A stretch of DNA of 64,000 nt from Daucus carota subsp. sativus. Lineage: Eukaryota; Streptophyta; Magnoliopsida; Apiales; Apiaceae. The stretch lies in contig NC_030383.2 of assembly GCF_001625215.2 (NCBI RefSeq), forward strand, positions 942,779 through 1,006,778, given 5' to 3'. Of this stretch, positions 1 to 8,088 are shown in pieces (the first letter of the stretch is position 1; every line of letters starts with the position of its first letter). The position numbers and the translations under genes are program-made. The notes under the pieces were generated by a model that did not search any database, was not told the origin of the DNA, and was given only the letters and a program-made list of their open reading frames with translations.

Positions 1-275
1 GCGACTACCCATCACAGCGTAGTGGGGCAATAATCACTTCAAGAACAGTCTAGTCTTCATCGAAGGGCTAGGCGACTCAGCTGTTCTGTATACTAATTCT
101 AGCGACGGTGTAAGGTGCGCCTTTCTCTTCTTTTCTCGTAATTTATCAGTCACTGATTATTGTGTATACGATCTTCGTGCATGCTATATTGTTGTGGTTT
201 CGTTGGCCTACTCTTGTTTATATAATATAACTGCTCTATACATTGTTGCTGTGATTTTCACTGTGACTCCCATCA
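1..275 (+). repeat. 5' LTR, 3'-terminal part
   Basis: Identical to 5611-5885 except for one base (T at 228 versus G at 5838). It ends in the canonical CA at 274-275. It corresponds to the R/U5 side of the LTR; the U3 promoter part lies upstream of the window. Position 30-44 contains the segment complementary to the leader at 277-291. Confidence 0.95.
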
Positions 276-276
276 A

Positions 277-291
277 TCTTGAAGTGATTAT
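277..291 (+). promoter_or_regulatory. Candidate primer-binding site, self-complementary to the LTR
   Basis: Starting one base after the LTR's terminal CA, these 15 bases (TCTTGAAGTGATTAT) are the exact reverse complement of 30-44 in the LTR (ATAATCACTTCAAGA). The usual plant copia primer site complementary to initiator tRNA-Met (TGGTATCAGAGC) is absent from the 40-base leader between the LTR and the ATG at 316, and no TGG-initiated tRNA complement is apparent. Location and perfect pairing suggest a self-primer like that of fission-yeast Tf1, or a structural RNA pairing. The complementarity is seen directly; the function is inferred. Confidence 0.5.
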
Positions 292-315
292 CTGTTATAT
301 TGTGTAGTAAGCAAG

Positions 316-3300
316 ATGGTTAATGAGATTGCGGATTCTGTTGTTGGTGGTGGTGCTGGTTCTGGGTCTGGTGTTACTAGTAACATCGATTGGACTACGT
401 ATCGTTTTCCACAGCCCATCGATTTATCAGGTATTCCTGATAAATTCGGTGGGGGAGTTTCTTTTTCTCGCTGGCAGAAAAAGATGAAACTGTGGCTTAC
501 GGTTAAGGGTCTGTGGCCGGTGTTACAGTACGAGAAACCAGTTGTGGTACAGGAAAAGGCTGAAACCCTTAAGGCCTATGCTATGTGGGAGGAAAAGGAT
601 GGGGTGGCTAGGGCTGCTATACTAACAACCTTAACGAACACTCTGTTCGATGTTTATTCATCTGACTCCTACACTGCTAAGACCTTGTGGGAGAAACTTG
701 ATCAGACACACAATACTGACTCGCAAGGGTTGGAAAAGTATTCTGTGGCTAAGTTCCTGGACTTCAAACTGGTGGATACAAAATCCATGACTGAGCAGGT
801 GCATGAGTTTGAGACGTTGGTGCATGCTTTGAAGGAGTCCGGAATGGACCTTCCTGAAAAGTTTTTGGTTATGTCTGTGATTGAAAAACTCCCTAAGTCT
901 TGGGAAGAGTTTGCACTCTCCCTGAAAAGACAGAAGGGAGAGATCACTTGGACTAACCTGATGCTGGACATCTCTGTGCAAGAGCAGCACAAGTCCAAAC
1001 AGGGACATGTGATGCCAACTGAATCTGGTAGCTCGAAGGTCAATGTAGTGACTGTGGGACAGAAAAGAAAGTCTGTCGCTAAGAAGGTGAACACTAAGCC
1101 CAAAACTGACAAGGGCAAGGCTAAGAAATCAAAGGCCAACAAACCATGTTGGTCTTGTGGACAGGTTGGTCATTGGAGTAAGGACTGTCCTGTAAAGAAA
1201 GCAAAGAAAGTAGAGGTGGTAGCACAAGCAAATACTGTGCTTGGAACCACTGATGGGCCTGTGCTTAACATGGTTGTTGGTGAGGCTGTTGCTTCTGAAA
1301 CCAATGACGGGAATGTTAAGTACAACCCTGAACTATTTTCCACTTATCTGTCTAATGAGTGGTTGATTGATACGGGAGCTAATGTGCACATTTGTGCTGA
1401 TATTACTCTGTTTGTATCTTATCAACAGGCTCATGGGATGACAGTGACGATGGGGAATGCTAGTGCGGCTCAAGTTCGTGGAATAGGAAACGTGGACCTG
1501 AAGTTTGCTTCAGGGTGTGTTCTATCCCTTACTAGAGTGCATCATGTTCCCGAGATTCGTAGAAATATTATTAGTGGAAGTTGTTTAGTTAAAAATGGCT
1601 TTGAACTTTCTTTAAAGTGTAATAAAGTAGTTATTACTCAGACTGGTGTGTTTTTTGGCAAGGGCTACTTGTCAGACGGCTTGTTTTTAATAAATGTGGA
1701 GCCTTTTTTAGGCGGTTTTATTAATGATATTGCTTCTCCTTCTGTTAATAATATTGAATCATCCGATTTGTGGCACTCTAGGCTTGGTCATTTAAATTTT
1801 GGTGCTCTAAAGAATATGATGAACTTAGAGTTGATTCCAAAGCATGCCATTGATAAGAAAACTAAATGTCAAGTATGTGTGACAGCTAAACTAACAAGGA
1901 AACCTTTTCATAGTGTGGTTAGGGATTCTGACTTGTTAGATTTAGTGCACTCGGACATATGTGAATTTGGTGGTGTGTTGACTAAGGAACACTGTAGATA
2001 TTTCATTACCTTTATAGATGATTGTAGTAGATATTGTTATGTTTATTTGCTTAAACATAAAGATGAAGCACTTGAAAAATTCATTAGATTTAAAACCGAA
2101 GTTGAAACACAAACTGGTAAAGTACTTAAACGTTTGAGATCTGATAGAGGTGGTGAATATACGGGAAACACCTTTAATGAATTTTGCAAGAGCAATGGTA
2201 TAATTCATGAGGTGACTCCACCATATACACCTGAGTCTAATGGGGTGGCAGAACGAAAGAACAGAACTTTTAAAGATATGATTAACAGTATGTTGATTAA
2301 TTCGGGGTTGCCTAAGTACATGTGGGGGGAGGCTCTGAATACGGCTTGCCATATTCTGAATAGAGTCCCTCTGAAACATATGGACAAGACACCTTACGAA
2401 TTATGGAAAGGCAGGAAAACTAGTCTAAAGTATCTTCGTGTGTGGGGGTGCCTTGCTAAGGTACTTGTCCCTGAACAGAAGAGAAAGAAACTAGGGCCGA
2501 AAACTGTTGATTGTATCTTTCTGGGCTATCTCGAAACCACTACAGCTATGAGATTTTTAGTATTAAAATCTGACATAGATGGTATAGTGGCAAACACGAT
2601 AGTTGAGTTTCGTGATGCTACATTCTTTGAGGATGTGTTCCCTATGAAGACTGGTATACCTCAAAGTTCTTCTAGTGATGATCCTACTCACACATCTAGT
2701 TCTATTCCCGATTATGTGGAAAAGATGACAAATGTGGGGGCAAATCCTGCTAGTAGCTCTACTCCTAATGAAGTTGAGGAACCTAGAAGGAGCAAGCGTG
2801 CAAAGGTAGTTAAGGACTTTGGAAGTGATTTTATCACTTACAATGTCGAAGACGAACCTTTGACTTTCCGACAAGCCATGGATTCTTCGGAATCTAGGCA
2901 CTGGAAAGGCGCTGTGAAGAGTGAGATTGACTCTATTGTTTCTAACGGAACATGGGAGTTGGTTGACCTCCCTCCTGGGTGTTCTACTATAGGATGTAAG
3001 TGGATCTTCAAAAGGAAGATGAAACCAGATGGCTCAATAGATAAGTATAAAGCCAGATTGGTTGCTAAGGGTTTTAGGCAAAGAGAAGGCATTGACTACT
3101 TTGATACATACTCTCCTGTTGCAAGATTGACAACGATCCGAATGCTTGTAGCATTGGCTTCCGTACATGGTCTTATCATCCATCAAATGGATGTAAAGAC
3201 AGCTTTTCTTCATGGTGATCTTGAAGAAGAGATTTATATGGATCAGCCTGAGGGATTTGTTGCATCTGGCAATGAGAGGAAAGTATGTAAGTTAGTCAAA

Positions 3301-4434
3301 TCCATCTACGGCTTGAAACAAGCTCCTAGAGACTGGCACAAAAAGTTTGATGACACTGTTTTGACTTTTGATTTTATAGTTAATGATAATGACAAGTGTG
3401 TCTACTATAAGGTTAAAGGAAATGAACATATTGTGTTGTGCTTGTATGTGGATGATATACTACTGTTTGGAACCAATATTGAGATTATTAACGAGACAAA
3501 GAATTTCTTGAAAAGACACTTTGAAATGAAGGACATGGGTGAGGCGAATGTGATTCTTGGACTCAAGTTGACTCAGTCAACTGAGGGAATAACCTTGTCA
3601 CAATCTCATTATATAGAGAAATCTATACTTGAGAAGTATGGTTATTCAAATTGTAGAATTGCTAGTACACCATATGATCCTAAAGTTGCTATTATCAAGA
3701 ATGCTTCAGGTGTACCTGTGTCTCAGTTAAGATATTCTCAGATTATTGGTAGTTTACAATATCTTGCTAATGGTACTAGACCAGATATATCATATTCTGT
3801 GTCTAAGTTAGCAAGATATACAAGCTGTCCAAACAGAACTCATTGGGATGCTCTAGATAGAGTACTTAGATATCTGAAAGGCACCATATATCTTGGGTTG
3901 CACTACAGGAGATATCCTAGTGTGCTTGAGGGATATAGTGATGCGAGTTGGATAGCTAAGAAGTCTGGTTCCAATGGAGTGACTGGATATCTGTTTACCC
4001 TTGCGGGTGGAGCAGTATCCTGGAAGTCGACTAGACAGACTATAGTAACTCGGTCTACATTTGAGGCCGAGTTGTGTGCATTGGATGCCACGGGTACGGA
4101 GGCTGAATGGTTACATGGACTCATGTCTATGTTACCTGTAGTAAGTCGTCCGCTACCGGCAATTTCTGTTCATTGTGATAGCCGTACAACTATCGACAAG
4201 ATCAGAAGTGTCAAGTATAATGCTAAAACAAAGAGACACATCCAAGTTAGACTTAAGTCTATAAGGGGTTTGGTGTCTGATCGGACTATTGCTATTGAGT
4301 TCATTGGAACTCAAGATAACATAGCTGATCCACTGACTAAAGGGCTTGAGCATGCTGTTGTCCTTAAGTCAAGGTTGGGGATGGGACTGATAACCCATCA
4401 TGATTCATCTACAGCGGGAACCCAATACATCTGA
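316..4434 (+). CDS. Ty1/copia Gag-Pol polyprotein, intact
   Basis: This 1372-residue polyprotein is the complete machinery of the retrotransposon: nucleocapsid, protease, integrase, reverse transcriptase and RNase H, made as one chain and cut by its own protease. The Gag part has a copia-type N-terminal domain (roughly residues 45-250) and a CCHC zinc knuckle with C278, C281, H286 and C291. The protease active site DTG is at 352-354. The pre-integrase motif begins at W486 (WHSRLGHLN). The integrase catalytic triad is likely D547, D610 and E646. The reverse transcriptase YVDD box is at 1044-1047. RNase H begins near D1209 (SDASW), and the frame runs on to a typical TKGL tail. No frameshift or stop interrupts it. 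The ATG lies 40 bases after the LTR. I did not assign a lineage. Confidence 0.97.
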   Translation: MVNEIADSVVGGGAGSGSGVTSNIDWTTYRFPQPIDLSGIPDKFGGGVSFSRWQKKMKLWLTVKGLWPVLQYEKPVVVQEKAETLKAYAMWEEKDGVARAAILTTLTNTLFDVYSSDSYTAKTLWEKLDQTHNTDSQGLEKYSVAKFLDFKLVDTKSMTEQVHEFETLVHALKESGMDLPEKFLVMSVIEKLPKSWEEFALSLKRQKGEITWTNLMLDISVQEQHKSKQGHVMPTESGSSKVNVVTVGQKRKSVAKKVNTKPKTDKGKAKKSKANKPCWSCGQVGHWSKDCPVKKAKKVEVVAQANTVLGTTDGPVLNMVVGEAVASETNDGNVKYNPELFSTYLSNEWLIDTGANVHICADITLFVSYQQAHGMTVTMGNASAAQVRGIGNVDLKFASGCVLSLTRVHHVPEIRRNIISGSCLVKNGFELSLKCNKVVITQTGVFFGKGYLSDGLFLINVEPFLGGFINDIASPSVNNIESSDLWHSRLGHLNFGALKNMMNLELIPKHAIDKKTKCQVCVTAKLTRKPFHSVVRDSDLLDLVHSDICEFGGVLTKEHCRYFITFIDDCSRYCYVYLLKHKDEALEKFIRFKTEVETQTGKVLKRLRSDRGGEYTGNTFNEFCKSNGIIHEVTPPYTPESNGVAERKNRTFKDMINSMLINSGLPKYMWGEALNTACHILNRVPLKHMDKTPYELWKGRKTSLKYLRVWGCLAKVLVPEQKRKKLGPKTVDCIFLGYLETTTAMRFLVLKSDIDGIVANTIVEFRDATFFEDVFPMKTGIPQSSSSDDPTHTSSSIPDYVEKMTNVGANPASSSTPNEVEEPRRSKRAKVVKDFGSDFITYNVEDEPLTFRQAMDSSESRHWKGAVKSEIDSIVSNGTWELVDLPPGCSTIGCKWIFKRKMKPDGSIDKYKARLVAKGFRQREGIDYFDTYSPVARLTTIRMLVALASVHGLIIHQMDVKTAFLHGDLEEEIYMDQPEGFVASGNERKVCKLVKSIYGLKQAPRDWHKKFDDTVLTFDFIVNDNDKCVYYKVKGNEHIVLCLYVDDILLFGTNIEIINETKNFLKRHFEMKDMGEANVILGLKLTQSTEGITLSQSHYIEKSILEKYGYSNCRIASTPYDPKVAIIKNASGVPVSQLRYSQIIGSLQYLANGTRPDISYSVSKLARYTSCPNRTHWDALDRVLRYLKGTIYLGLHYRRYPSVLEGYSDASWIAKKSGSNGVTGYLFTLAGGAVSWKSTRQTIVTRSTFEAELCALDATGTEAEWLHGLMSMLPVVSRPLPAISVHCDSRTTIDKIRSVKYNAKTKRHIQVRLKSIRGLVSDRTIAIEFIGTQDNIADPLTKGLEHAVVLKSRLGMGLITHHDSSTAGTQYI

Positions 4435-4946: not shown

Positions 4947-4958
4947 TTTGTGGGGGAT
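4947..4958 (+). promoter_or_regulatory. Polypurine tract
   Basis: The sequence TTTGTGGGGGAT directly abuts the TG that opens the 3' LTR. This is the standard position of the plus-strand primer. It is short and interrupted by T, which is common in plant copia elements. Confidence 0.75.
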
Positions 4959-5106
4959 TGTTAGAAAATGGAAAGTTTAAAGCATATTTCTTTAATATGT
5001 TCTTGATGTAATTTCCGGGACATTTTCTTAGTGAAATCCATAGAGAAATAGAGTTGAATACAGTGGCTTGAAAGAGCTTGAAATGAGAATGTGATTCATT
5101 TAATCT

Positions 5107-5375
5107 GGACAAATGAATCTGATCAGTATATCTGACAGATACAGATTCATTGAATCTGGACAAATGAATCTGGTCAGTATATCTGACAGATACAGATTCA
5201 TTGAACCTGGACAAATGAATCTGGTCAGAATGTCTGACAGATACAGATTCATTGAACCTGGACAAATGAATCTGGTCAGAATGTCTGACAGATACAGATT
5301 CATTGAACCTGGACAAATGAATCTGGTCAGAATGTCTGACAGATACAGATTCATTGAACGTGGACAGATGAATCT
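5107..5375 (+). repeat. 51-bp tandem repeats in LTR U3, five copies plus a partial
   Basis: Copies begin at 5107, 5158, 5209, 5260 and 5311, with a truncated sixth at 5362. Each contains the outer dyad ATGAATCTG...CAGATTCAT and, inside it, GTCAG...CTGAC (GTCAG becomes ATCAG or similar in the first copies). The array sits upstream of the TATA box, where plant retrotransposons carry repeated enhancer or stress-response boxes. Because 51 is a multiple of three and the unit lacks stops, it reads open on both strands as a 17-residue repeat. I regard those frames as by-products, not genes. Confidence 0.9.
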
Positions 5376-5398
5376 GGACAGTGTGTTGGTGGCTTGGC

Positions 5399-5416
5399 CT
5401 CACTATAAATAGTGAG
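5399..5416 (+). promoter_or_regulatory. LTR core promoter TATA box in a near-perfect palindrome
   Basis: CTCACTATAAATAGTGAG includes the TATA element (CTATAAATAG) and is almost self-complementary: CTCACTAT and ATAGTGAG arms flank a central AA. It lies just after the U3 repeats and about 30 bp before a pyrimidine-rich stretch likely to hold the transcription start. Confidence 0.75.
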
Positions 5417-5885
5417 CCTCGACACTTGAGTTGGAGCACGGGAAAAACACAAACACCATTCTCATTCTTCTCTATTACACTCTCACCCTCTGCTCCGATA
5501 TATACACATATACATACTGTTCTCGGGCGAACTGAGGTGTTGATCGCTGTTGATCGTACTCGTGTCTGTGAGCGGTTCGGTCTGTGCTGTTTTATCCTGG
5601 GAGCGATATTGCGACTACCCATCACAGCGTAGTGGGGCAATAATCACTTCAAGAACAGTCTAGTCTTCATCGAAGGGCTAGGCGACTCAGCTGTTCTGTA
5701 TACTAATTCTAGCGACGGTGTAAGGTGCGCCTTTCTCTTCTTTTCTCGTAATTTATCAGTCACTGATTATTGTGTATACGATCTTCGTGCATGCTATATT
5801 GTTGTGGTTTCGTTGGCCTACTCTTGTGTATATAATATAACTGCTCTATACATTGTTGCTGTGATTTTCACTGTGACTCCCATCA

Positions 5886-6100
5886 ATCTCATCCTAAAAA
5901 TATTATCATCAAGAACTTTTCCAGATATGATTGTAACATGGTGAATCTTAGACCACCTAAAATTCAAGAGATTCAAGGCGCTGGCATAATGGTCGGACTG
6001 TCCCAAACTCTGTGTCTAAGTTCTGACAATGGTGCTGTTTCTAGTGCTACATTGACGCACCAGCATTTGTGAGCAACGCACATACCCACATCTCCGTAAG
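5886..6100 (-). pseudogene. Truncated 3' copy of a defensin-like gene
   Basis: This stretch is a close copy of 9275-9490, the 3' half of the intact cysteine-rich gene at 9364-9609 and its downstream flank. On the minus strand it still encodes the C-terminal 41 or so residues in frame, including the GMC...CWC core and the MPAP end, with the stop at 5973-5975. The homology stops abruptly near 6100, so the signal peptide and first cysteines are missing and the fragment cannot make a secreted peptide alone. The retrotransposon lies immediately downstream of it in gene orientation and a Tourist-like MITE lies just beyond its broken end. It is probably a product of segmental duplication. Confidence 0.85.
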
Positions 6101-6113
6101 AGAAATGGCTTTA

Positions 6114-6574
6114 GAGGGGTGTATTGGATTGATATTTTAAAGCATTTTTTTCATTCATGAAATTCGAGGATATTCGATTGAGATTATTTGAAATCTATTA
6201 AAATTTTAAGGTATTCAATTGAGATTTTAAATTATGCTACAAAATATGATGATATTCAATTGAGATTTTAAATTATACCTTAAAATCCGTTAGTATTCAA
6301 TTGAGATTGTTTAAAATCCATTAAAATCTGATGGTATTCAAATGCTGATGGATTTTTTTGGATTTCATAAAATGATGGATTTTGTATTATTATTTGGTGT
6401 ATTTTAAGTTTTTTAAAATCCCACCAAAATCAATGGGATTTTGAAGTATTGTGATTAAATCCTACAACTCTGCAACATTTTATTAAGAAAACACATAAAA
6501 TCAAAATCACATACAATACATTAAAATTCATGGACTAAAAACAATCCATTAAATACCCGATCGAATACACCCTG
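6114..6574. mobile_element. Tourist/PIF-Harbinger-like MITE, 461 bp
   Basis: The termini GAGGGGTGTATTGGATTG and CGATCGAATACACCCTG are inverted relative to each other, and the element is flanked by TTA at 6111-6113 and 6575-6577, the 3-bp target duplication typical of PIF/Harbinger elements. The interior has sub-repeats based on TATTCAATTGAGATT spaced about every 30-60 bp. No coding capacity. Confidence 0.75.
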
Positions 6575-7527: not shown

Positions 7528-7761
7528 TTAGATTTTCTTGCCAGGGCAAGTGGGTATTGGATAATATTTCGGATGCTCATGGCATTCGCATCTATGGTGG
7601 TGACAAACTGGTATACGGTGATAACATAGAGTCTGGCAATCACAGACGTCGTAACAAAAATTTTTTGGTGGAAATGGTGGTGCTGCTACTTCTGCTTGTA
7701 CAGAAATAGTGGATATGAGAATGAGGGACAAAATTGTAAGTGTGAATGTGATCTGCTTCAT
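7528..7761 (-). CDS. Secreted cysteine-rich defensin-like peptide, His/Pro-rich
   Basis: A single-exon gene of 77 codons. The start is the ATG at 7761, because an N-terminal signal peptide begins there (MKQITFTLTILSLILISTIS, cleavage near residues 22-24); the frame continues upstream but that extension does not look like protein. The mature part has eight cysteines, with CX3C, then C-X4-C-X-C, resembling the cysteine-stabilised alpha-beta fold of plant defensin-like peptides but lacking the usual Gly before the central Cys. It is unusually rich in His, Pro and Tyr. A TATA box (GTATATATAC) lies on the minus strand about 90 bp upstream. The signal peptide is closely related to that of the gene at 9364-9609, while the mature parts are very different, as in fast-evolving antimicrobial or signalling peptide families. 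Function is inferred from family type only. Confidence 0.75.
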   Translation of the reverse strand: MKQITFTLTILSLILISTISVQAEVAAPPFPPKNFCYDVCDCQTLCYHRIPVCHHHRCECHEHPKYYPIPTCPGKKI

Positions 7762-7870
7762 GTTTGATCTGACTTGTATGAGTGTAAAATGATATGATTT
7801 TTTACTTGTGTTGTAGAGAATGAAATTCAACATAGCTAGTTCACCTGTATATATACACGGTATGGGGAGT

Positions 7871-8088
7871 TTGAAATCAGAAACCGATAAATAATAAATT
7901 ATATATTTTATAACGGATTCCGACTGATTTTGGTTGGCATTAAAAGACAATCATATAAAATCTGAAAGATACAGGGGGTTTGAATTCAGAAACCGATAAA
8001 TAATAAATTATAGATTTTATAACGGATTCTGAATGATTTTGGTTGGCATTAAAAGACAATCATATAAAATCTTAAAGATTGTGTAGAG
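7871..8088. repeat. 109-bp tandem duplication upstream of the cysteine-rich gene
   Basis: The segment starting TTGAAATCAGAAACCGATAA at 7871 recurs at 7980 with a few substitutions. Both copies carry ATAACGGATTC and TTGGTTGGCATTAAAAGACA. It lies just upstream of the TATA box of the 7528-7761 gene and may contain promoter elements. Confidence 0.85.

What the first reader, a model, noticed from the sequence alone, without database searches (positions are those of the whole stretch)
1..315. Copia element whose primer-binding site is complementary to its own LTR
Bases 277-291, starting one base after the LTR's terminal CA, are a perfect 15-nt reverse complement of 30-44 inside the LTR (also 5640-5654 in the 3' LTR). 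No initiator tRNA-Met site is present. A 15-nt perfect match exactly where the primer must bind is very unlikely by chance. Tf1 of fission yeast is known to prime reverse transcription with its own RNA, but its primer is the extreme 5' end of the transcript; here the segment lies some 230 bp after the TATA box, so it would need internal cleavage or a start site further downstream. A long-range stem closing a loop of about 230 nt, for packaging or translation control, is the alternative.
Basis: partly seen in the sequence, partly recalled or inferred. Interest (0 to 1): 0.8.

Follow-up and report, generated by a model that had tools for sequence, protein, structure and literature searches.

The report
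Plant retrotransposon priming from its own RNA
A family of plant jumping genes carries, next to its start site for DNA copying, a short stretch that matches a piece of its own RNA instead of a transfer RNA, and related families keep the match while changing its letters together, which points to self-priming; that was already predicted for one plant lineage, and here it gains strong comparative support and new structural detail.

Summary
Bases 277-291, one base after the 5' LTR end (275), are the exact reverse complement of 30-44 in the LTR. The LTR is 927 bp and starts outside the window; the 3' LTR (4959-5885) carries the same arm. Relatives in the same genome have different primer-site sequences that stay complementary to their own LTR: 93 of 103 scorable loci pair at all first 14 positions (76 without G-U), in eight sequence classes; cross-class pairs reach only 3-13 of 14. 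On 14 aligned loci, changed pairs are double changes in 19 cells and one-sided in 1. No TGG (tRNA 3'-end site) follows the LTR in 103 of 103, whereas 15 of 15 other copia elements sampled have a tRNA-Met site; six self-type RT sequences form one 100/100 branch. The primer lies about 240 nt after the TATA box. It is the 3' strand of a covarying hairpin and is followed by a second one. Self-priming was already predicted for the TAR lineage of plant copia elements (PMC6317226), so this is most likely a member. The internal, hairpin-embedded primer and the covariation were not in the papers I saw. There is no RNA evidence.

The parts
1..275 (+). 3' part of the 5' LTR; 652 bases of the 927-bp LTR lie before the window
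   Evidence: LTR comparison with L001 and the 3' LTR
30..44 (+). self-primer arm in the 5' LTR (pairs with 277-291; 29-44 corresponds to the 16-nt unit of the B families)
277..291 (+). primer-binding site complementary to 30-44, one base after the LTR end
291..291 (+). last paired base: the only column of 360 with all four bases among 36 young copies (T32 G2 C1 A1)
27..43 (+). 3' strand of local hairpin H1 (its 5' strand runs from 14 bases before the window to base 2); whole hairpin in the 3' LTR at 5597-5653
   Evidence: folds; covariation
43..78 (+). hairpin H2 directly 3' of the primer (stem 48-57 / 64-73, foot 43-44 / 77-78)
192..231 (+). U5 strand of a predicted helix H3 with 294-334, which encloses the primer site (weak evidence)
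294..334 (+). leader strand of the predicted helix H3, reaching over the gag start (weak evidence)
316..4434 (+). single open frame gag-pol: gag, CCHC, protease region, integrase, RT (RVT_2)
4950..4958 (+). purine-rich tract before the 3' LTR (label by position, recalled convention)
4959..5885 (+). 3' LTR
5403..5412 (+). TATA box CTATAAATAG, 237 nt before the arm in the same LTR
5640..5654 (+). the same primer arm in the 3' LTR
5886..5890 (+). target-site duplication ATCTC (other copy directly before the 5' LTR in L001)

Best explanation
This is a young Ty1/copia LTR retrotransposon that starts reverse transcription with a piece of its own transcript instead of a tRNA. The 15-16 nt arm in the R/U5 part of the RNA pairs with the site just after U5. 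The RNA is cut at the 3' end of the arm (after ...CTTCAAGA), which gives a 3'-OH that primes minus-strand DNA through U5; strand transfer to the 3' LTR then replaces the rest. The arm also sits in the transcript as the 3' strand of a hairpin (H1) whose foot lies 0-1 nt from the predicted cut, and a second hairpin (H2) follows. Shown: the complementarity, its place, its conservation and double changes, H1/H2 covariation in the A-C families, and the separate RT branch. Inferred: pairing in the RNA, cleavage, the enzyme (the element's own RNase H as in Tf1, or a host hairpin nuclease), priming itself, and copying of the primer back into the site.
For: Exact 15-nt match at the primer position. A family: 42 of 44 copies pair at the first 14 bases without mismatch or G-U, 1 has a G-U pair (L066), 1 is rearranged (L063). 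Eight sequence classes, each complementary to itself: 93 of 103 rows 14/14 with G-U allowed, 76 of 103 without; cross-class 3-13 of 14. On 14 A/B/C rows: 98.2% of cells paired against 34-49% when slid; 5 of 16 pairs with double changes (9 of 500 shuffles reach that); 19 double against 1 one-sided cell, a mix unlike H1 (10 double, 22 one-sided; Fisher p 7e-6) and H2 (15 against 12; p 0.003), as expected if the site is copied from the primer rather than drifting through G-U. The last paired base is four-allelic in A, and the base after the regular pairing in E, as wear at the primer's 5' end would be. H1/H2 on 13 rows: 96.0% paired against 40-51% slid, 8 of 27 pairs with double changes (5 of 500 shuffles); H1 z-scores -1.6 to -3.9 in 10 of 10. 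In the G loci L087 and L123 the arm-site pair is itself in the minimum-energy fold. 15 of 15 other copia elements sampled have the tRNA-Met site, and six self-type sequences form one branch, 100/100. Published prediction for TAR.
Against: No RNA, cDNA or enzyme data. 10 of 103 rows pair imperfectly, and 8 of 111 loci gave no row: 4 without a site in the piece fetched (L084, L120, L127, L140), L082 and L106 with a site but no arm, L063 rearranged, L067 missed by my script though intact. One control is not passed: the number of further pair types is no higher than in shuffles for arm-site (317 of 500 reach it) and only weakly so for H1/H2 (39 of 500). The fold of the whole leader is not more stable than shuffles (z -0.58), and its minimum-energy fold lacks the arm-site pair (-133.2, against -132.8 with it forced). 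In longer folds H1 is absent in L066 and L083 and partial in L085. In B1 no TATA box was found near the arm. The whole tRNA set of the genome could not be searched. Cells in the pair counts share ancestry, so the Fisher p-values overstate independence.
Confidence: 0.85

Rival explanations
1. The two segments form a long-range stem for packaging, dimerisation or control of translation, and the real primer is another RNA.
For: The arm-site distance varies (54-374 nt) while the pair stays, and it lies before the gag start; covariation alone would also be produced by selection for any stem.
Against: The stem starts at LTR+2 in every class, where a primer must sit; no TGG follows the LTR, unlike 15 of 15 tRNA-Met elements sampled. 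Changes are nearly all full double changes, unlike the two hairpins beside it.
Confidence: 0.1
2. The primer is a host RNA (an internal tRNA fragment or another small RNA), and the LTR arm is a captured copy of it.
For: Half-tRNA primers are reported for other plant copia lineages (Osser, Bryco, Gymco-II, Bianca; PMC6317226).
Against: At least eight different primer sequences would each need a host RNA and a matching LTR copy. Pattern CACTTCAAGA 5-35 nt before a tRNA B box: 0 hits in the genome (no positive control could be run, and only this one order and sequence was tested). The four exact genomic 15-nt matches outside element copies lie in no ARAGORN tRNA.
Confidence: 0.03
3. Chance match of no function.
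For: None found.
Against: Shuffles and independent classes.
Confidence: 0.005

Closest known systems
TAR lineage of plant Ty1/copia (Houba, Osr-1), Neumann et al. 2019, PMC6317226 (sections 13 and 20 read, other passages seen)
   Same: Copia gag-pol; no tRNA site; at least 10 bp starting 0-5 bp after the 5' LTR complementary to the 5' LTR; predicted self-priming, the only copia lineage they name for it
   Different: No TAR reference sequence was at hand, so RT placement within TAR is untested; the parts I read do not describe where in the LTR the primer lies, its hairpins or double changes (supplements not readable here)
Tf1/sushi self-priming (Tf1 of fission yeast; passages of PMC10085805 and PMC4600332 seen)
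   Same: Primer site complementary to the element's own RNA; in Tf1 further helices join site-adjacent and LTR sequence (pretzel), as H3 may do here
   Different: Ty3/gypsy chromoviruses; primer is at the 5' end of the RNA, whereas here it lies about 240 nt after the TATA box, inside a hairpin
tRNA-Met primed copia elements of the same genome
   Same: Copia RT
   Different: TGGTATCAGAGC site in 15 of 15 sampled (14 exact, 1 with one mismatch); separate RT branch

Membership tests
Ty1/copia LTR retrotransposon | gag, protease region, integrase before RT, in two LTRs with short target duplication | tested here: met
   Pfam order Retrotran_gag_2, CCHC, Pol_BBD, gag_pre-integrs, rve, SH3_retrovirus, RVT_2; LTRs and ATCTC
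TAR lineage (self-priming plant copia) | at least 10 bp from 0-5 bp after the 5' LTR complementary to the 5' LTR | tested here: met
   15 nt from 1 base after the LTR; criterion
TAR lineage (self-priming plant copia) | no tRNA 3'-end primer site | tested here: met
   for the window; no TGG in the first 8 site bases in 103 of 103 rows (the one hit, L003, came from a second arm copy that my script took for the first)
TAR lineage (self-priming plant copia) | RT/RH/INT groups with TAR references (Houba, Osr-1) | not testable with these tools
   No reference sequences held; only a separate branch from 15 tRNA-Met elements shown
Tf1/sushi self-priming group | Ty3/gypsy chromovirus | tested here: not met
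   copia RT and domain order
Tf1/sushi self-priming group | primer at the 5' end of the RNA | tested here: inconclusive
   TATA box 237 nt upstream of the arm; start site not measured
Tf1/sushi self-priming group | primer released by the RNase H of RT | not testable with these tools
   no enzyme data

The most novel reading that the evidence does not exclude
A whole plant copia clade excises its primer from inside its transcript. The primer is the 3' strand of a conserved hairpin, cut at the junction with the next hairpin (by its own RNase H or by a host hairpin or tRNA-end nuclease) and about 15-16 nt long, and each round writes the primer sequence back into the primer site, so that LTR and site change together. 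This is a route to self-priming unlike Tf1's 5'-end primer.
Probability: 0.4. Interest if true: 0.75.

Novelty: new member of a known kind. Interest (0 to 1): 0.52.

Why it matters
In the survey I read, self-priming in plants rests on a sequence match of at least 10 bp. Compensating changes over eight sequence classes make it a strong hypothesis, suggest the primer's two ends, and show that the primer is probably internal. That raises questions that can be tested directly: what cuts the RNA, and how does plus-strand copying stop at the primer's 5' edge?

Tried and rejected
Compensating changes inside the A family: none; arm and site are invariant over the first 14 bases in the 36 young copies, so other families were needed. 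Relatives in viral contigs: none. Helix H3 by alignment: MAFFT shifted the U5 motif by a few bases, so no pair count was made; in A, B1, B2 and B3 its 8 nt are reached by 4-11 of 60 simple shuffles (L066 12 nt and L096 14 nt by 0 of 60); kept as weak. Whole-leader stability: not above shuffles. A 15-nt inverted match at L168 (tRNA-Met type element) looked like an LTR copy of the tRNA end; its flanks look to me like another element in the other orientation, and it was dropped without a test. Search for a full tRNA set: not answered. Papers: in PMC2206039 and PMC4659654 'self-priming' occurs only in a reference; PMC2829016 has no primer-site statement on Osr1 in the 12 of 17 passages shown; PMC5445492 reports fungal GalEa copia without a primer site but with a hairpin (passages).

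Full report
What is there. The window begins inside the 5' LTR of a copia element. The rest of the LTR was read from the genome (L001): 927 bp, TGTTAG...CATCA, with 2 differences from the 3' LTR (4959-5885) and ATCTC duplicated on both sides. At an assumed 1.3e-8 changes per site and year (recalled rate) that is about 83,000 years. The frame 316-4434 is open throughout and has copia domains in copia order. The genome is a 441-Mb assembly in 11 contigs; its size and nine chromosome-sized contigs suggest carrot to me, which I did not test.

The match. 30-44 and 277-291 are perfectly complementary. Of 5000 shuffled LTRs the best gave 13 nt (1 of 5000), and 4432 gave no match of 8 nt or more. The LTR ends at 275, one spacer base follows, and pairing starts at 277.

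Copies of the same family. I examined 44 copies (L001-L030, L061-L074). In 42 the first 14 bases pair without a mismatch or G-U, L066 has a G-U pair, and L063 is rearranged: its apparent arm is an inverted copy of the LTR end. Eight of the 44 (L061-L068) belong to diverged types (four of them aligned to the query at 86-87%); in these the arm-site distance is up to 56 nt longer. No base pair changed on both sides inside the family.

Other families. A gag search of the genome listed matches from 100% down to 32% identity, the list being cut. I fetched 5' regions of 67 loci chosen from it (13, 54). With the 44 this makes 111 loci; 103 gave an arm and a site. Pairing of the first 14 positions is complete in 93 with G-U allowed (76 without) and imperfect in 10 (L077, L083, L086, L107, L111, L114, L121, L130, L133, L135). 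Not in the count: L063, L067 (intact, missed by my script), L082 and L106 (site without arm), and L084, L120, L127, L140 (no site in the piece fetched). The fully paired rows have eight different site sequences (A, B1, B2a, B2b, B3, E, F, G; F by one locus, L119); pairing an arm with another class's site gives 3-13 of 14. Pairing starts at LTR+2 in every class; in E and F that first pair is G-U.

Kind of change. On 14 aligned loci of the A, B and C families the 16 pairs are formed in 98.2% of cells (34-49% when slid), five pairs have double changes, and there are 19 double against 1 one-sided cells. The local hairpins show a mixture (H1 10 double and 22 one-sided, H2 15 and 12). Self-priming predicts the difference: plus-strand synthesis copies the primer into the site, so the site follows the arm in one step. 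This is an inference, and shared ancestry weakens the p-values. One of the five shuffle measures, further pair types, is not raised (317 of 500).

Edges. Over 360 columns in 36 young A copies only base 291, the last paired base, shows all four nucleotides. In 17 E copies site bases 1-12 and 14 are invariant, 13 and 15-19 vary, and the most evenly mixed of 263 columns is site position 16 (T6 G4 C4 A2, one gap), just past the regular pairing; two other columns also carry four bases. B shows little of this. I read it as wear at the primer's 5' edge, where the second strand transfer must join; other causes are possible.

Hairpins. The arm is the 3' strand of a hairpin H1 whose 5' strand follows a TTTTATCC motif in the A, B, E and G loci checked, not in the F loci (8 of 10). 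H1 folds better than the shuffle mean in 10 of 10 sequences tested (z -1.6 to -3.9), with its foot 0-1 nt from the arm's 3' end. In longer folds it is absent in L066 and L083 and partial in L085, and in L087 and L123 the arm pairs with the site instead. H2 follows directly. On 13 A/B/C rows H1 and H2 together are 96.0% paired, with 8 of 27 pairs doubly changed; for E, F and G H1 rests on folding alone. In E a strong hairpin also starts at the arm's end. Arm-site duplexes (-16.0 to -22.3 kcal/mol) exceed the arm with its H1 partner strand as a duplex (-7.6 to -18.1) in 8 of 8, but the intact H1 hairpins fold at -14.7 to -23.3, so which state wins is open. The whole-leader fold is not remarkable; forced arm-site pairing costs 0.4 kcal/mol there.

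Place in the transcript. The TATA box is 237 nt before the arm in A. TATA-like boxes lie at -239 to -247 in the four B2/B3 loci, -197 to -210 in five E loci and -138 in L087 (G), measured to the arm's 3' end; L086 (F) has several; the two B1 loci have none nearer than about 1 kb. So the primer is most likely internal.

tRNA. In 103 of 103 rows the first 8 site bases hold no TGG. Exact matches of a 15-mer of the site in the genome: 48, of which 43 are element sites, one is the inverted LTR end in L063, and four lie elsewhere with no tRNA found by ARAGORN. CACTTCAAGA before a B box: 0 hits, without a positive control. A full tRNA search never ran.

Other copia elements. Of 150 listed RVT_2 hits (7521 candidates) I took 15, all with open frames of 1339 aa or more. 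All 15 have a tRNA-Met site in the expected zone, 14 exact and 1 with one mismatch. The RT tree puts window, B1, B2, E, F and G (the last by 189 aa) on one branch, 100/100, midpoint-rooted.

Known. Neumann et al. [quoted passage not shown] By the site type this element most likely is TAR. My searches (listings with starts of abstracts, then passages of six papers besides Neumann) showed no paper describing an internal hairpin primer or such covariation in plants; subscription papers, including the review cited there for Houba and Osr-1, were not seen.

Noticed in passing
window 5093-5381 (U3 of the 3' LTR; also in the 5' LTR, L001): 51-bp tandem repeat, 5.7 copies at 96%, with imperfect inverted repeats inside; lies upstream of the TATA box and could be an enhancer-type repeat.
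   Followed up: no
L063 (G000:C8:25649800-25652000): Copy with an inverted duplicate of its LTR end and primer site 144 nt away, possibly an aberrant reverse-transcription product.
   Followed up: partly
L087 (G family; weaker in L122, L123): Most distant self-type family in the gag list has the shortest arm-site distance (54-55 nt); in L087 a further complementary pair, seen by eye (GGTGG/CCACC core), would cross the arm-site pair like a pseudoknot.
   Followed up: partly
window 7528-7950, - strand: 140-aa frame ending in a small cysteine-rich peptide with a signal-peptide-like start; may be a secreted plant peptide gene.
   Followed up: no
window 6171-6341: 41-bp tandem repeat, 4.2 copies, just downstream of the element.
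   Followed up: no
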